From: a virus
IMG/VR virus record: IMGVR_UViG_3300032722_000146
Span: 1 to 20,714 of that record
Reading direction: 5' to 3' (one strand)
DNA: 20,714 bases
Shown here: piece after piece, positions 2,935-10,413 of the stretch
Numbering within the stretch: the stretch's first letter is position 1
Layout of the letters: every line of letters begins with the position of its first letter
Made by a program: the position numbers and the translations under genes
Notes under the pieces: generated by a model
What the model was told of the DNA's origin: nothing
What the model saw: the letters and a program-made list of their open reading frames with translations, nothing else
Databases searched by the model: none

Positions 2935-3486
2935 TTATATTCTGCTCTCTATAATCTTAATTTTTTTCTTAAAAATTTTAATTAGTCTTATTAGATAGTC
3001 AATATCATATTTTCTAATATCATTTTTATCCATCAACCAATCAACTTTATATTGACCTATTTTTTTAATTAATCTAGGTAAATACTCTATGTGATTTGAT
3101 GATAAATGATTATTACAAACAGAGCAACTCTTATTTATGTTCCACAAATTAAATCTTAATTGAGGAGCAGCACCAACACTTCTAAAATGTGATGCGTGCC
3201 ATTGGCCATTCCATGATGCTGGCTTATTGCAACTAACGCAGCCTAAATCTTTATCTCTAAGCCTACAATATCTATTTACAATAGTTTGTGTTTCTTTTAG
3301 CCAGTCAGATTTAGTCTTTAGTTTAATCTTAGCTTCTTTAGTTTCCTTGCGTTCAGCCTTCTCTCTGACTGTTTTAGCATGATCCCATGCACAGTTTGGG
3401 GAACACACAGATTGTAATGGTCTAGTTGGTGTAAACTTTACTTTACATATTTTACAAGTCTTGTCTTTAATAGGCTTAGTTATCAT
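2935..3486 (-). CDS. ninG: NinG/Rap-type recombination endonuclease
   Basis: A 183-residue homologue of lambda NinG (Rap), a structure-specific nuclease that resolves recombination intermediates. A zinc-knuckle CKICxxxF...CSPNCAWDHA sits at residues 11-35, a basic coiled region at 37-65, and a CxxC-HASHFRSVGAAPQLRFN...CSVCNNH region in the second half contains the HNH-like residues characteristic of the family. The ATG at 3486 was chosen because it matches the family N-terminus; upstream ATG (3504) and TTG (3519) starts exist in frame. The 5' end overlaps the preceding homing-type gene by 11 bases, which may reflect insertion of that gene just upstream. Confidence 0.9.
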   Translation of the reverse strand: MITKPIKDKTCKICKVKFTPTRPLQSVCSPNCAWDHAKTVREKAERKETKEAKIKLKTKSDWLKETQTIVNRYCRLRDKDLGCVSCNKPASWNGQWHASHFRSVGAAPQLRFNLWNINKSCSVCNNHLSSNHIEYLPRLIKKIGQYKVDWLMDKNDIRKYDIDYLIRLIKIFKKKIKIIESRI

Positions 3487-3964
3487 CAAAGTAAAATTCC
3501 CCATGATGCTGTTTTGCAAAATAAATTCTTGCTTCTTTTGCAGCTTCTAAAGTATCAAATCTTCCAATATAAATTCTTACTTTATTAACATGAACAGAAA
3601 CTCTAAATTTTTGTCTATCACTTTCATAATAAACTCCTCTACATTTAGCAATATTATCAGCCCTATAAGCGTTCATAGCATTTTGTGAAACTGTCGCTTC
3701 TCGTAAATTTGTAATTTGATTATTATGACCATTTCTATCTTTATGATCTAATATTCCAATTGGAAATTTTCCATTAACATAAAGCCAAGCTAACCTATGC
3801 GCTAAGTATTGTTTATTATTAATTCTTAATGTTGAATATTTTTTATCTTTATACCCTGCTTTTTTACCAACTCTGACACAGCGACAAGTTTTTTTAATCC
3901 AAGTAAAATCCCCTGTGAATTCGTCATAATGTAATAGTTCTTTTAATTCTGATTGTGTAATCAT
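3476..3964 (-). CDS. HNH endonuclease with AP2-type DNA-binding domain
   Basis: A 162-residue free-standing homing-type endonuclease. The N-terminal LLHYDEFTGDFTW pattern, then H56 and ILDHKDRNGHNN...NLREAT (71-91) form the HNH_3 core, and residues about 104-158 (RGVYYESDRQKFRVSV...IGRFDTLEAAKEAR) form an AP2-like DNA-binding domain. Such genes spread between phages by cutting DNA next to their own insertion site. AGAGGA lies six bases before the ATG. It separates ninB from ninG, which are close neighbours in lambdoid phages, and is preceded by a 95-base structured intergenic segment. Confidence 0.85.
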   Translation of the reverse strand: MITQSELKELLHYDEFTGDFTWIKKTCRCVRVGKKAGYKDKKYSTLRINNKQYLAHRLAWLYVNGKFPIGILDHKDRNGHNNQITNLREATVSQNAMNAYRADNIAKCRGVYYESDRQKFRVSVHVNKVRIYIGRFDTLEAAKEARIYFAKQHHGEFYFDDN

Positions 3965-4059: not shown

Positions 4060-4422
4060 TCATAAATCTTCAAAAAAGAAGCCGATATTTGTTCCCCATT
4101 CTTCTATCTTATCTTGGTACTCACCCATCTCTTTTGTGGATAACTTTGTTGTACTCTTAATTAATTCTACCGATTCACCACCAATTTCATCTTGGTAACG
4201 TAGGAACTTCCATCCCATAAGATCGTGTACCTTGTCCTGGTGTTCACCAATATACATACCCAAAGCATTATACAGCTTCCATAGCCTACTATTCTGCTCT
4301 ATTGATCGTGATGTAGTTCTTATTTTAGCTGACACTACATAACCCAATGAAAGGTCTAAGGCTTCTAGTTTTGCAATTAAATAAGGTAAGTTACTTTTTG
4401 ACAGGCTAAAGTTAGTAATCAT
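4060..4422 (-). CDS. ninB: NinB family recombination protein
   Basis: A 120-residue protein of the NinB (lambda Orf) family, which binds ssDNA and SSB and helps load recombinases. Diagnostic segments are SRSIEQNSRLWKLYNALG (38-55), the WKFLRY region (71-76), and the C-terminal ELIKSTTKLSTKEMGEYQ followed by IEEWG. Length is close to the usual 140 residues, slightly short at the N-terminus. It overlaps the upstream gene by four bases (ATGA). Together with NinG, ERF and SSB it makes a phage recombination set, although the genes are split between two divergent arms. Confidence 0.88.
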   Translation of the reverse strand: MITNFSLSKSNLPYLIAKLEALDLSLGYVVSAKIRTTSRSIEQNSRLWKLYNALGMYIGEHQDKVHDLMGWKFLRYQDEIGGESVELIKSTTKLSTKEMGEYQDKIEEWGTNIGFFFEDL

Positions 4423-7042: not shown

Positions 7043-7320
7043 TGTCAGATGAAGATATACAAGCTGAACTAAACAGCATGAGTGAAGAAGAAAGAGAAGC
7101 CAATGATGCTGAGTGTGAATTAGCATGGGCAGATATGTTGTCAATGTACGAAGCAGAAATGAAAGCATACAAGATTGAAATAGCTGACAAGTTTAGAGAT
7201 TATCTTTACAACAATTACACAATAGGCAATGGCGATCAATTATTACAAGCTGAAGAAGATGGTATAGAAGATTTCTTACGTGAGAATGATTTACCGCCAG
7301 ACATGGAGATAGAGTTATGA
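7039..7320 (+). CDS. Small acidic hypothetical protein
   Basis: A 93-residue, very acidic protein (SDEDIQAELNSMSEEEREAN, later EEDGIEDFLRENDLPPDM), likely helical. Two consecutive ATGs are available; AGGGGA lies upstream at usable spacing. It overlaps genes on both sides by four bases (ATGA), so it is translationally coupled to the ERF gene downstream. High negative charge is reminiscent of DNA-mimic early proteins, but nothing in the sequence proves that. Confidence 0.72.
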   Translation: MMSDEDIQAELNSMSEEEREANDAECELAWADMLSMYEAEMKAYKIEIADKFRDYLYNNYTIGNGDQLLQAEEDGIEDFLRENDLPPDMEIEL

Positions 7321-7973
7321 ATGTATATAAAAAATTAAATGCTGCACGAACTACGTTACAGGGTTGGGATTTAACTAAATCTGGCCATAACAAGTTTGCA
7401 GGTTACAAGTATTTTGAGCTTGGTGACTTCTTACCAGCGATCAATACAATCTTTGATGCAGTCGGATTATGCGGTGTAGTGAGTTTTACTGCTGACTTGG
7501 CTACATTGACTATTGCAGATATAGAAGATGGCTCACAGGTCGTTATTACAAGCCCTATGGGTAGTGCTGCACTCAAAGGTTGCCATGAAGTTCAAAATAT
7601 TGGTGCGGTAGAAACTTATCAGCGCAGATACTTATGGGTAACAGCGATGGAAATTGTAGAACATGATGCTTTAGATGCAACTAATGGTAAAGAAGCACCA
7701 GAAGGTCGTGCTAAGGCAGCATTAAAACCAATTCCAACTAGCCCTACTTTAGCTTTAGCAATGCCTAGCTTTGACACATTGCCAGCTGAAGAACAAGAGT
7801 TCATTCTTAACATAGCAATGGAGATTACAGCAGCCATCACTGATGAAGATATGACTGAAGCACACAGGTTAGCCAGTAGCTTAGACAATGACGAAAAACT
7901 AGCCCTATGGTCAAGACTTGATAGCAAACAAAGATCAGCACTTAAACGCTATTCTGAATCATTGAAAGGTTAA
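7317..7973 (+). CDS. erf: ERF-family single-strand annealing protein
   Basis: A 218-residue homologue of P22 Erf, which anneals complementary single strands during phage recombination and genome circularization. The diagnostic core is KFAGYKYFELGDFLP (26-40), the SPMG region (79-82) and QNIGAVETYQRRYLWVTAM (93-111) followed by EHDALDA (115-121). The C-terminal third (about 125-218) is a linker with a helical domain, as in other ERF proteins. GGAG lies eight bases upstream of the start. It is followed by a small gene and by ssb, whose product is its usual functional partner. It may also drive the module shuffling seen downstream. Confidence 0.92.
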   Translation: MNVYKKLNAARTTLQGWDLTKSGHNKFAGYKYFELGDFLPAINTIFDAVGLCGVVSFTADLATLTIADIEDGSQVVITSPMGSAALKGCHEVQNIGAVETYQRRYLWVTAMEIVEHDALDATNGKEAPEGRAKAALKPIPTSPTLALAMPSFDTLPAEEQEFILNIAMEITAAITDEDMTEAHRLASSLDNDEKLALWSRLDSKQRSALKRYSESLKG

Positions 7974-7975
7974 TC

Positions 7976-8119
7976 ATGTTAATACATAGCTTATACGGCC
8001 TGTCAGCACCACCATCTAAATTAGTTGAGATTAGAGAAAAAAAAATAGCTAAACTTAAAAAAGAGATGGGTAATAAATATTTACTAGCAATTAACTATAT
8101 AAAAAAGGAAATAAAATGA
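7976..8119 (+). CDS. Small basic protein between erf and ssb
   Basis: A 47-residue protein whose second half is strongly basic and helical (LVEIREKKIAKLKKEMGNKY and KKEIK at the end). AAAGG lies six bases upstream of the ATG and the stop overlaps the ssb start by four bases (ATGA). No family recognised. The position between two single-strand DNA proteins suggests, but does not show, a related role. Confidence 0.6.
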   Translation: MLIHSLYGLSAPPSKLVEIREKKIAKLKKEMGNKYLLAINYIKKEIK

Positions 8120-8526
8120 ATAATTTAAGCGCAACTGGTGGTATTGGTAAAGACGCTGAATTACGTTATACACCTAGTGGTGATGCTATCTGCTCTTTTG
8201 GCTTCGCATTAACAAGTGGATTCGGTGATAAGCAAATTACATCTTGGCTCAATGCCAACTTGTGGGGTAAACGTGCCGAAACTTTAGCACCTATGCTTTT
8301 AAAGGGTACTAAGGTTGGTATTGTAGGTGAACTAACTAACCGACCTTACAAAGATAAGAATGGTAATGAGAAGTTTTCATTGGAAGTACGTGTAAGCGAT
8401 TTAACGCTGTTAGGAAGCAAAGCTGATACAAGCACATCACCTAATGAATATAACGTGCCTAAGACGCTTAAAACAGCTTCTATGAGTACACCTGTAGAAG
8501 ATATAGACAGCAATTTGCCATTTTAA
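8116..8526 (+). CDS. ssb: Single-stranded DNA-binding protein
   Basis: A 136-residue SSB. The OB fold spans residues 1-100, with LSATGGIGKDAELRYTPSGD (4-23), the SFGFAL strand, SWLNANLWGKRAE and KGTKVGIVGEL segments all typical. The C-terminus ends in DIDSNLPF, the acidic tip with terminal Pro-Phe that docks SSB partner proteins such as NinB/Orf and replication enzymes. AAGGA lies before the ATG. It protects single strands during replication and recombination and works with ERF in the same operon. Confidence 0.96.
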   Translation: MNNLSATGGIGKDAELRYTPSGDAICSFGFALTSGFGDKQITSWLNANLWGKRAETLAPMLLKGTKVGIVGELTNRPYKDKNGNEKFSLEVRVSDLTLLGSKADTSTSPNEYNVPKTLKTASMSTPVEDIDSNLPF

Positions 8527-8602: not shown

Positions 8603-8800
8603 ATGTTGGCTAGTTTAGTTAATCAGTATTTAAGCATTAAAACTAGAGAAGAACTTAGGGCTAGAGATCCAGTTTGCCCTAGGTGTGAATCACGACCTAG
8701 ACACCGTACAGCGATTGATGAAAGATTAACCAGTTACTGTACACCTTGCCACCAAGCTATAAAAAAAGAGATGTATCAAGAAAGGATAAAAAATGACTAA
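8603..8800 (+). CDS. Small zinc-ribbon protein
   Basis: A 65-residue protein with CPRC (25-28) and CTPC (46-49) pairs, followed by H50, in a basic background (RPRHRTAIDERL between the pairs). This is a two-knuckle zinc ribbon likely to bind nucleic acid or protein. AGGAG sits seven bases before the ATG. Its last eight bases overlap the start of the first MTKDEAL paralog. Similar short zinc-ribbon proteins are common in early regions of environmental phages; function unknown. Confidence 0.75.
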   Translation: MLASLVNQYLSIKTREELRARDPVCPRCESRPRHRTAIDERLTSYCTPCHQAIKKEMYQERIKND

Positions 8801-9026
8801 AGATGAAGCATTAAAGATGGCGATTGAAGCGTTGATAAATTCTTTAACAATCCAAGATGTTGCAATCAACGCTTGCCAAGACGCATTAGAGCAACCTAAA
8901 GAGAAGAAGTATTTGTATGTGTATAAAGGGCAGGGGTATCAATATAATTTGTCTAGTGAAAAATATGCAACAGGTTCAGCATATATGGGAGCATACATAG
9001 GAAAGATTGAGGTGCAAGATGACTAA
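8793..9026 (+). CDS. Modular early protein, copy 1 (MTKDEAL head, YLYVY tail)
   Basis: A 77-residue protein made of two modules. Head: MTKDEALKMAIEAL...INACQDALEQP, a short helical hairpin found at the N-terminus of many phage accessory proteins. Tail: KKYLYVYKGQGYQYN...GKIEVQDD, a compact beta-rich module. The first 35 bases are nearly identical to copy 3 at 9897, and the tail matches the genes ending at 9678 and 9904. It overlaps the genes on both sides by eight bases through a repeated junction (gaggtgcaag before the next ATG). Function unknown. Confidence 0.72.
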   Translation: MTKDEALKMAIEALINSLTIQDVAINACQDALEQPKEKKYLYVYKGQGYQYNLSSEKYATGSAYMGAYIGKIEVQDD

Positions 9027-9294
9027 AGATGAAGCATTGTTGATGGCGATAAATACATTATGTAATTGTGGATTGCAAATTGGTGGACACGCATTAATAT
9101 CACCTTACATTCATGAAACTGTATACGCCTGTAAAGAAGCACTAGAACAACCAACTGAACAACCAACTAGATTAGAAGTAATTGATGCTGATGGAAGAAC
9201 CTATACCAACTGGAAAGTTAAAGAGTTGCAATTCAGTTATCAGGACAATGGAAAGACTTTAAAGATATTTGTTACGGAGGTACAAGATGACTAA
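9019..9294 (+). CDS. Modular early protein, copy 2 (MTKDEAL head)
   Basis: A 91-residue paralog starting MTKDEALLMAINTL, with a longer middle ending CKEALEQPTEQPTRLEV and a C-terminal region (DGRTYTNWKVKEL...) that ends in EVQDD like its neighbours although the rest of the tail differs. The ATG at 9019 was chosen over one at 9007 because the upstream GAGG and the junction repeat place it there. It overlaps the previous gene by eight bases and the next by eight. Head conserved and tail replaced is what module exchange would produce. Confidence 0.7.
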   Translation: MTKDEALLMAINTLCNCGLQIGGHALISPYIHETVYACKEALEQPTEQPTRLEVIDADGRTYTNWKVKELQFSYQDNGKTLKIFVTEVQDD

Positions 9295-9385
9295 CTTTTG
9301 GAAGAATTTTTGGTTTGGTTTTAATCCTAAAAATTGGGTAGAAGTCTGGAAACAGAATTGGAAGAATATCAAGGAAACAAAATGA
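9287..9385 (+). CDS. 32-residue tryptophan-rich micropeptide
   Basis: ATG preceded by GGAGG at six bases encodes MTNFWKNFWFGFNPKNWVEV then WKQNWKNIKETK. Nine of 32 residues are Trp or Phe (Trp at 5, 9, 17, 21 and 25), interleaved with Lys and Asn. It is an amphipathic, cationic, interfacial-type peptide. It overlaps the previous gene by eight bases through the same junction repeat used in the array and the next gene by four bases (ATGA). No family recognised; a membrane-interface role is inference. Confidence 0.55.
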   Translation: MTNFWKNFWFGFNPKNWVEVWKQNWKNIKETK

Positions 9386-9678
9386 CACAACATAAATGGG
9401 CAAAAGAAATTCATGCGTGGGCTGATGGGGCTGAGATTGAGCAATCACTTGAAAATGCATCAGGCTGGACTGGTTGGCATAATGTAGTTACCCCTACATT
9501 TTATACAAGCGGTGCAGAGTTCCGCATTAAACCACAACCAAAAGAGCCACAGTATATGTATGTGTATAGATGTACAGCAGATAGCGAATTTCGATTACAT
9601 GAAGATGGAAATATGGAAGGCTCTCGTTGGAAACTTAAAGGCAAAATTAAATTGGAGGTGGATGATGAGAAAAGCTGA
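9382..9678 (+). CDS. Modular early protein (HAWADGAEI head, YMYVY tail)
   Basis: A 98-residue protein with head HKWAKEIHAWADGAEIEQ and GWTGWHNV...FYTSGAEFRIKP, a recognisable phage accessory module (AWADGAxI ... FRIKP) of unknown function, followed by the tail PQYMYVY...KGKIKLEV shared with genes at 8793 and 9665. CAAGGA lies before the ATG at 9382; an in-frame ATG at 9334 is rejected because it lies inside the upstream peptide gene without a ribosome binding site. A different head on a shared tail supports modular recombination. Confidence 0.72.
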   Translation: MTQHKWAKEIHAWADGAEIEQSLENASGWTGWHNVVTPTFYTSGAEFRIKPQPKEPQYMYVYRCTADSEFRLHEDGNMEGSRWKLKGKIKLEVDDEKS

Positions 9679-9904
9679 ATTGCTTGAAAAACTCAACAAA
9701 CTTCAAAAGCAACTTGACAATGTAACAAATGTTGTGGATTTAATGGCAAGAATCGAACATGCGAGACAAGATAAAATAAAAGAGAAAAAGTATTTGTATG
9801 TATATGCTGATGGTGACTTCTTTATACATAGCCAATCACCCATTGGTGCACCTGCACATTGGCAGTATTTTGGAAAAATTAAACTAGAGGTGCAAGATGA
9901 CTAA
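9665..9904 (+). CDS. Modular early protein (coiled head, YLYVY tail)
   Basis: A 79-residue protein with a coiled-coil head (MRKAELLEKLNKLQKQLDNV) and the shared tail KKYLYVYADGDFF...YFGKIKLEVQDD. GGAGG is six bases before the ATG at 9665, matching the spacing at the other junctions of the array; an ATG at 9662 is also in frame. It overlaps the previous gene by 14 bases and the next by eight. It is the third gene in this stretch to carry the YLYVY tail, on a third type of head. Confidence 0.7.
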   Translation: MRKAELLEKLNKLQKQLDNVTNVVDLMARIEHARQDKIKEKKYLYVYADGDFFIHSQSPIGAPAHWQYFGKIKLEVQDD

Positions 9905-10259
9905 AGATGAAGCATTAAAGATGGCGATTGATGGTTTAGAAATTCATCAACAAGATATTCTTGATGCCTGTAAAGAAGCACTAGCGGAACAACCAACACA
10001 AGAGCCTTATGCTTGGGTTATGGTAAATAGAAACCCTGACCATCAGGATATTTACTTCTTACCTACTAAGCCAACTAGAGAGCAAAAGATTAGCCATCAA
10101 CCATATGAACTCTACACCCACCCAAAACAATGGCATGGGTTGAGTGATGATGAGATATGGGATATAGCTAACTTTTTAGGTAAGAATAAAGAATGGGATT
10201 ATCCAGTTATGTTTGCTAAGACTATTGAGAAGGCATTAAAGGAGAAGAACGATGAATAA
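9897..10259 (+). CDS. Modular early protein, copy 3 (MTKDEAL head, GLSDDEI tail)
   Basis: A 120-residue paralog with head MTKDEALKMAIDGLE...DACKEALAEQP, then QEPYAWVMVNRNPDHQDIYFLP and YELYTHPKQWHGLSDDEIWD, a pattern common in hypothetical proteins of environmental phages (EPxAW ... LYTHP ... GLxDDEI). The first 35 bases match those of copy 1 at 8793 almost exactly. It ends the array. The TK/P-rich middle is likely flexible. Function unknown. Confidence 0.72.
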   Translation: MTKDEALKMAIDGLEIHQQDILDACKEALAEQPTQEPYAWVMVNRNPDHQDIYFLPTKPTREQKISHQPYELYTHPKQWHGLSDDEIWDIANFLGKNKEWDYPVMFAKTIEKALKEKNDE

Positions 10260-10413
10260 ACATAATCTAATTACAGGCGATCTAATGCAGACTAAGCCTA
10301 GCAAAACATATGCAGATAACTTTGATGCTATCTTTCGTAAGCCTGAAAAAGAAGTAGTTGTTGATGATGAAGATGTATTAAAACAGGAGAATGGTGATGC
10401 CATGCAACCATAA
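10252..10413 (+). CDS. Small hypothetical protein
   Basis: A 53-residue protein (MNKHNLITGDLMQTKPSKTY at the start) with an acidic patch VVVDDEDV in its second half. AAAGGAG lies upstream at good spacing. It overlaps the previous gene by eight bases and shares 17 bases with the following one in another frame. No family recognised. Confidence 0.6.
   Translation: MNKHNLITGDLMQTKPSKTYADNFDAIFRKPEKEVVVDDEDVLKQENGDAMQP

What the first reader, a model, noticed from the sequence alone, without database searches (positions are those of the whole stretch)
8793..10259. Array of recombining head-and-tail modules in early proteins
Five neighbouring small genes are built from reused parts. The MTKDEAL head is at 8793, 9019 and 9897 (first 35 bases of the first and third nearly identical). 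The YLYVY...GKIKLEVQDD tail is at the ends of the genes finishing at 9026, 9678 and 9904, on three different heads. The junction gaggtgcaag-ATGAC recurs at 9019 and 9897 with variants at 9287 and 9665, always giving the same overlap of stop and start. That is a built-in recombination point that keeps every new combination in frame with its own ribosome binding site. The phage encodes ERF, which can recombine short identities. The array may work as a diversity-generating cassette for accessory proteins.
Basis: partly seen in the sequence, partly recalled or inferred. Interest (0 to 1): 0.62.

Follow-up and report, generated by a model that had tools for sequence, protein, structure and literature searches.

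The report
Module-swapping small genes in phages
A phage carries a row of small early genes built from interchangeable pieces; close relatives have different combinations or none, and the pieces join at short DNA sequences kept almost letter-perfect even between otherwise unrelated phages.

Summary
Six small genes (8793-10259) sit between a fixed left gene (8603-8800) and a fixed right gene (10252-10413). Sibling phages have 0, 1, 2 or more genes there. Two have the flanks joined directly. One has a single gene whose first 138 nt are identical to window gene B and whose end is the tail of window gene F. Other siblings and unrelated phages show further re-pairings.

In about 90 further IMG/VR loci, partial identities between such genes end at the ATG, at an 'EQP' linker, or at a C-terminal anchor. 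The anchors are conserved as DNA: 38 of 68 distinct MTKDEALKMA genes share one 30-mer out of 6144 synonymous spellings, in loci of 32-60% GC. Conserved ERF codons vary freely. The head start ATGACTAA carries stops in both other frames, and natural arrays use both.

Best reading: a hypervariable accessory locus reshuffled by homology-driven recombination at short anchors, between genes and inside them. Not shown: ongoing switching within one phage, a dedicated mechanism, or protein function. ERF is not general (10 of 50 cassette phages), and no reverse transcriptase was found.

The parts
8603..8800 (+). Fixed left flank gene, 65 aa, CxxC...CxxC (zinc-finger-like)
   Evidence: 94-100% identical protein in six IMG/VR contigs; its stop lies in the first codons of whatever gene follows
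8793..9026 (+). Gene A: MTKDEAL head, CQDALEQP linker, YLYVY tail (GKIEVQDD)
   Evidence: model: helix 3-33 plus three strands, pLDDT 84, pTM 0.46
9019..9294 (+). Gene B: MTKDEALLMA head, CKEALEQPT linker, its own tail
   Evidence: head plus linker 100% identical over 138 nt in sibling L091, where it has another tail; 90% over 142 nt in L137 and L175, which show no other similarity to the window
9287..9385 (+). ORF C, 32 aa, starts at the 9287 junction variant
   Evidence: sequence; no family match
9382..9678 (+). Gene D: KEIHAWADGAEIE head, RIKPQPKEPQ linker, YMYVY tail
   Evidence: phrog_34112, phrog_15048 and phrog_21668 (unknown function) match the head; the head is 87% identical over 161 nt in L006/L021, whose gene has another tail
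9665..9904 (+). Gene E: MRKAELLEKL head, YLYVY tail
   Evidence: tail 9791-9903 is 89% identical in sibling L025/L003, on a MTKDEAL head
9897..10259 (+). Gene F: MTKDEAL head, ACKEALAEQPTQEP linker, THPKQW...LSDDEI...ALKEKN tail
   Evidence: tail 10111-10256 is 90% identical in L091 behind head B; model pLDDT 84, pTM 0.44
8793..8825 (+). Head anchor, copy 1 (ATGACTAAAGATGAAGCATTAAAGATGGCGATT); other copies at 9019 and 9897
9127..9156 (+). Linker anchor in gene B (GCCTGTAAAGAAGCACTAGAACAACCAACT); other copies near 8871 (A) and 9966 (F)
   Evidence: identity between L091 and gene B ends at 9156; codons fixed in 35 copies
9789..9806 (+). YLYVY anchor in gene E; other copies near 8908 (A) and 9551 (D)
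   Evidence: repeat D5; homology of L025 to the gene E tail starts at 9791
9887..9904 (+). Gene-to-gene joint GAGGTGCAAGATGACTAA; other copies at 9009, 9277 and 9655
   Evidence: repeat D6
10252..10413 (+). Fixed right flank gene (MNKHNLITGD), 53 aa
   Evidence: 94-100% in close siblings, weaker relatives in six more; directly joined to the left gene in L095 and L096
7317..7973 (+). ERF-type single-strand annealing protein, proposed recombinase
   Evidence: PF04404 E=2.6e-11, phrog_155 E=5.4e-23
4060..4422 (-). NinB (Orf-type recombination mediator), proposed helper
   Evidence: PF05772 E=1.4e-6
2935..3519 (-). NinG (Rap-type), proposed helper
   Evidence: PF05766 E=4.2e-50

Best explanation
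This is a hypervariable accessory locus, probably early-expressed, in a lambdoid-type phage. It holds small proteins assembled from exchangeable heads, inserts and tails. Shown: gene number and head-tail pairing differ between siblings at one fixed site, and modules are shared with otherwise unrelated phages. The exchanged pieces meet at a few short DNA anchors: the ATGACTAA... head, the (A)CKEALEQP/QEP linker, the YLYVY motif, and the ALKEKN or GKI(KL)EVQDD end. The head, linker and ALKEKN anchors are conserved codon by codon. Inferred mechanism: when two phages, or a phage and a prophage, replicate in one cell, single-strand annealing or other homology-driven recombination pairs these 20-35 nt anchors and deletes, adds or swaps cassettes between them, in frame. 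The head start ATGACTAA reads as a stop in both other frames (TGA at +1, TAA at +5), so an upstream gene arriving in either frame ends cleanly and the new gene starts there. In this phage the likely enzymes are ERF with NinB/Orf and NinG/Rap. Inferred function: dispensable accessory proteins, most likely for host takeover or counter-defence, whose variety is favoured because hosts differ.
For: Same site with no genes in L095 and L096, one B-head/F-tail gene in L091, two genes in L025, D-like and F-like genes in L094/L100. Partial identities between cassette genes end within 15 nt of a linker 95 times of 208 against 37.7 expected, maximum 56 in 2000 permutations; others start at the ATG or end at the C-terminal anchor. 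60 of 102 module-sharing locus pairs show no other DNA similarity in the stretches held. Fully degenerate scan: 38 of 68 distinct genes share one 30-mer, Thr2 is ACT in 68 of 68, Ala10 is GCG in 54 of 68. Control: conserved ERF codons have mean top fractions 0.70/0.54/0.45 (2-, 4-, 6-fold) against 0.92/0.91/0.93 in the anchors. In nine phage clusters pairwise identity is near chance before the ATG, mostly 1.0 for the first 30 bases and near chance soon after. Upstream genes end at TGA+1 in 36 and TAA+5 in 25 of 109 cases, against 104 of 900 such overlaps at random ATGA sites. ERF, NinB and NinG are in the window, and Erf-type recombinases, Orf and Rap promote mosaicism between diverged phage DNA in lambda (PMC3945230).
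Against: No exchange was caught in the act; contigs are consensus assemblies. BLAST alignments tend to end at conserved blocks, so the breakpoint test does not prove crossovers inside the anchors. ERF is in only 10 of 50 cassette records, RecT in 0, Sak4-like above cut-off in 2, although many records are fragments. About half of internal alignment ends (113 of 208) are not near a linker. Expression timing and protein function rest on inference only.
Confidence: 0.72

Rival explanations
1. Ordinary phage mosaicism with no special role for the anchors. Exchanges occur at random places, selection keeps only those at domain edges, and the anchors are simply conserved protein segments that stay in common.
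For: Phage domain shuffling is widespread (PMC10684548). Many internal alignment ends are not at linkers.
Against: Protein selection alone does not fix synonymous codons. Anchor codons are far more fixed than those of conserved ERF positions, and the same 30-mer occurs in loci of 32-60% GC.
Confidence: 0.15
2. The anchors are conserved for another nucleotide-level reason, such as translation initiation, translational coupling or an RNA element, and exchange at them is a by-product.
For: The head anchor lies at the start codon. ACT at codon 2 creates the TAA used as the stop of the upstream gene in 25 of 109 cases, and only 28% of other Met-Thr starts use ACT.
Against: The linker and C-terminal anchors are equally fixed but lie inside or at the end of genes. 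Codons such as GCG at Ala10 (13% in background) have no evident coupling role.
Confidence: 0.1
3. Simple tandem duplication of one ancestral gene followed by divergence within this phage.
For: Several genes in a row share heads or tails.
Against: Siblings carry head-tail pairs absent from the window, and single modules match otherwise unrelated phages at 90-100%.
Confidence: 0.02
4. A diversity-generating retroelement mutating a variable region.
For: Only the outcome, variable proteins with constant parts.
Against: No reverse transcriptase in the window or in 50 cassette-bearing records. The variation is whole-module replacement, not scattered point changes.
Confidence: 0.01

Closest known systems
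Boundary-sequence model of lambdoid phage mosaicism (short conserved sequences at module borders; cited in PMC3029335)
   Different: Here joints also lie inside genes, are fixed at synonymous sites across many otherwise unrelated phages, and the head joint carries stops in two frames. [quoted passage not shown]
Relaxed homologous recombination by Rad52-like phage recombinases (Redbeta, RecT, Erf) with Orf and Rap (PMC3945230)
   Same: The window phage encodes ERF, NinB (Orf) and NinG (Rap).
   Different: That work is experimental in lambda. Activity here is inferred, and most cassette-bearing records searched lack a recognised Erf or RecT.
Domain mosaicism in phage proteins (PMC10684548)
   Same: Fragments shared between otherwise unrelated proteins.
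   Different: That study stresses receptor-binding proteins, endolysins and polymerases; this is a family of tiny proteins of unknown function, with nucleotide-level joints. The authors expect more mosaicism among unknown and accessory proteins.
Polymorphic effectors with a swappable C-terminal part, such as CdiA (from general knowledge, not tested)
   Same: Works alike in outline: a constant part joined to a swappable part at a conserved junction.
   Different: Here heads, inserts and tails all swap, the proteins are tiny and phage-encoded, and no relation by sequence was found or claimed.

Membership tests
Boundary-sequence (short homology) phage mosaicism | Different modules at the same site in related phages | tested here: met
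   L095, L096, L091, L025 and L094/L100 compared with the window
Boundary-sequence (short homology) phage mosaicism | Short conserved DNA at the borders of exchanged pieces | tested here: met
   Alignment ends at ATG, linker and C-terminal anchor; fixed codons
Boundary-sequence (short homology) phage mosaicism | Recombination actually occurs at the border sequence | not testable with these tools
   Needs a phage cross or reads from a mixed population
ERF-driven exchange | ERF present in phages carrying the cassettes | tested here: not met
   Present in the window; only 10 of 50 other cassette-bearing records have it, many of them fragments
Diversity-generating retroelement | Reverse transcriptase encoded by the phage | tested here: not met
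   PF00078: 0 of 51 records
Integron-type cassette array | Site-specific integrase with attC-like sites | not tested
   No integrase search was run; the intragenic joints are unlike integron cassettes
Known protein families | Match to Pfam, PHROGs or NCBIfam above threshold | tested here: not met
   None for genes A, C, E and F; weak PHROGs of unknown function for part of B and D
Known anti-phage defence proteins | Match to PADLOC models | tested here: not met
   0 of 9 proteins

The most novel reading that the evidence does not exclude
A community of otherwise unrelated phages shares a common combinatorial kit for small accessory proteins. Its DNA adaptors (ATGACTAA head, EQP linker, C-terminal anchor) are kept by selection for recombination itself, so that any phage can plug in new heads, inserts and tails in frame. 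At least two adaptor dialects exist (MTKDEALKMA and MTKDEALKLA).
Probability: 0.3. Interest if true: 0.82.

Novelty: new variant of a known kind. Interest (0 to 1): 0.64.

Why it matters
Conserved joints have been proposed for phage mosaic borders but are not identifiable at most of them. Here they can be named to the base, they recur in about 90 phage loci, they lie inside genes as well as between them, and they are fixed at synonymous sites. That makes the old boundary-sequence idea directly testable in a cross, and it gives a sequence handle for a large, unannotated family of modular phage proteins that Pfam, PHROGs and NCBIfam largely do not cover.

Tried and rejected
DGR: no reverse transcriptase. 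Tandem duplication: contradicted by siblings. ERF as obligatory partner: 10 of 50; RecT 0 of 50; Sak4-like above cut-off 2 of 50. Protein conservation alone as the reason for the anchors: fails the codon control.

Function by family or fold led nowhere. Pfam and PHROGs give nothing for the MTKDEAL head or the YLYVY tail; weak PHROGs of unknown function match gene D's head and part of gene B's tail. PADLOC and NCBIfam give nothing for the six genes. AlphaFold models of A and F have pLDDT 84 but pTM only 0.46 and 0.44, and no significant Foldseek match. The one PDB sequence match is to a designed helical repeat and is not meaningful.

Contig ends near heads are somewhat enriched (31% within 2 kb against 17% expected; ERF control 21% against 19.5%; direct comparison p = 0.08). 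I treat this as weak support for population-level variation. The isolate-phage collection had almost no relatives. Papers naming this family were not found.

Full report
What was checked. The window is a 20,714-base IMG/VR phage record. I corrected four details. There are six genes, because a 32-codon ORF C (9287-9385) lies between B and D. The stop/start overlaps are 8 nt at five joints but 4 nt at 9382 and 14 nt at 9665. Gene A's tail ends GKIEVQDD. A further shared piece, the internal linker (A)CKEALEQP, occurs in A, B and F.

Sibling phages at the same site. The genes on both sides are well conserved: left 8603-8800 and right 10252-10413. L095 and L096 have them directly overlapping through ATGAATAA, so the whole array is absent. 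L091 has one gene there. Its first 138 nt equal window gene B from the ATG to 9156, then comes a stretch unlike the window, then the F tail at about 90% identity. L025/L003 has two genes. The first has a MTKDEAL head, with 97% identity to the window from the left flank up to 8834, and ends with gene E's tail (9791-9903, 89%). The second has another head and a KKYLYAY tail that L022 carries on a KAWADGAEI-type head. L094 with L100 has D-like and F-like genes. The contigs of 3300032561 and 3300032677, identical to the window over the stretch held, end inside the array at 9164 and 9127. This suggests but does not prove array variants in the population. Across 51 contigs the enrichment of contig ends near heads is modest.

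The wider family. Pattern scans of IMG/VR brought in about 90 loci with 116 head-bearing genes. They look assembled from a head (MTKDEAL...ACKEALEQP), zero to several inserts usually ending in EQP (for example LTRDWKETIDERIA, VAELNDEYLRDT, AEPRLVSYAPDGSTCTLNIDGEEVYFNREQP, SNMVAVPLDKLQDMQRRL), a QEPVAW segment, and a tail (HPHQWQGLTDDEI...ALKEKN or YLYVY...GKIKLEV). Partial nucleotide identities of at least 88% over at least 60 nt between otherwise different genes often end at the ATG, at linkers or at the C-terminal anchor. Internal ends lie within 15 nt of a linker 95 times of 208, against 37.7 expected and a maximum of 56 in 2000 permutations. In 60 of 102 module-sharing pairs the stretches held show no other nucleotide similarity. 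For most pairs only up to about 8 kb was held, so this refers to the neighbourhood of the cassettes.

Anchors as DNA. The head, linker, QGLTDDEI and ALKEKN anchors are conserved at synonymous sites. To remove search bias I scanned all viral contigs with a fully degenerate pattern for MTKDEALKMA. It returned 93 stretches. Of 68 distinct genes read from them, 38 have the same 30-mer ATGACTAAAGACGAAGCATTAAAGATGGCG out of 6144 possible spellings, in loci of 32-60% GC; Thr2 is ACT in 68 of 68 and Ala10 is GCG in 54 of 68. As a control, codons at conserved ERF positions in 80 phages vary freely: mean top-codon fraction 0.70, 0.54 and 0.45 for 2-, 4- and 6-fold sites, against 0.92, 0.91 and 0.93 in the anchors. 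Taking one gene from each of nine phage clusters with little or no detected DNA similarity outside the cassettes, pairwise identity is near chance before the ATG, mostly 1.0 over the first 30 bases, and near chance again soon after +35. A second dialect, MTKDEALKLA, in loci averaging 49% GC, has its own favoured codons (TTG at Leu7, CTG at Leu9).

Joint design. ATGACTAA contains TGA in one alternative frame and TAA in the other. In 109 genes with enough upstream sequence, the longest upstream reading frame ends at the TGA (+1) in 36 and at the TAA (+5) in 25; a stop overlap of this kind occurs at 104 of 900 random ATGA sites. Among other genes starting Met-Thr in these loci only 28% use ACT. 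My reading is that the head start works as an adaptor that ends an upstream gene arriving in either other frame. The use of both stops is shown; selection for it is inferred.

Mechanism. The window phage encodes ERF, NinB/Orf and NinG/Rap. De Paepe et al. [quoted passage not shown] This makes annealing at 20-35 nt anchors plausible here. It is not general: ERF was found in 10 of 50 cassette-bearing records, RecT in none, Sak4-like ATPase above cut-off in 2. Sibling L025 has an unknown protein (phrog_11717) in place of the ERF core with the same C-terminal tail. No reverse transcriptase was found.

Function. The genes lie in a rightward group with ERF and an SSB-like gene (8116-8526), and the array can be absent altogether, so it is accessory. 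I infer early expression and a host-takeover or counter-defence role; this is not shown. Families, defence profiles, solved structures and fold searches gave nothing usable. Models predict a long head helix plus a three-stranded sheet for A, and a helical hairpin, strands and two helices for F; pTM is below 0.5 for both, so only secondary structure should be used.

Comparison with the known. The boundary-sequence idea and the absence of such sequences at most mosaic borders are summarised in PMC3029335. Domain mosaicism in phage proteins is documented in PMC10684548, which expects more in accessory proteins and proteins of unknown function. The present case is a new variant of these: named, recurring, codon-fixed joints both between and inside small accessory genes. 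I found no paper describing this family, within a library that lacks most subscription journals.

Verdict. Observation confirmed. Interpretation partly supported: evolutionary module shuffling at conserved joints is well supported, while a dedicated generator, the general role of ERF, and protein function are not established.

Noticed in passing
window 7317-7973 and L025:2086-2697: The recombinase gene is itself a head-tail chimera: L025 has an unrelated N-terminal part (phrog_11717) joined to the same C-terminal tail (EGRAKAALKP...LKG) as the window's ERF.
   Followed up: partly
L094 end and L100 start (contig IMGVR_UViG_3300002307_000014, 31794 bases): The contig's two ends overlap by roughly 100 nt inside the array, so it is probably a complete circular genome of a sibling phage.
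   Followed up: no
L122:4132-4492 and L120:345-717: The small CxxC zinc-finger-like gene that flanks the array in the window has two tandem relatives in these phages, next to F-type tails.
   Followed up: no
L075:1027-, L175:3186-, L144:3611- (genes c104, c065, c034): Some genes string together several inserts that mostly end in EQP or a like linker, as if inserts had been added one after another at the linker.
   Followed up: no
L052:2591-3160 and L171:4001-: Some cassette genes carry an insert resembling DUF551 (WISVKDRLP...THWMYLP); this was recognised by eye and not confirmed by a family search.
   Followed up: no
L178:2273-2647 (CAIPQU010000110.1): One cassette gene with the exact head 30-mer lies in a contig of an uncultured beta proteobacterium MAG, a possible hint at the host group.
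   Followed up: no
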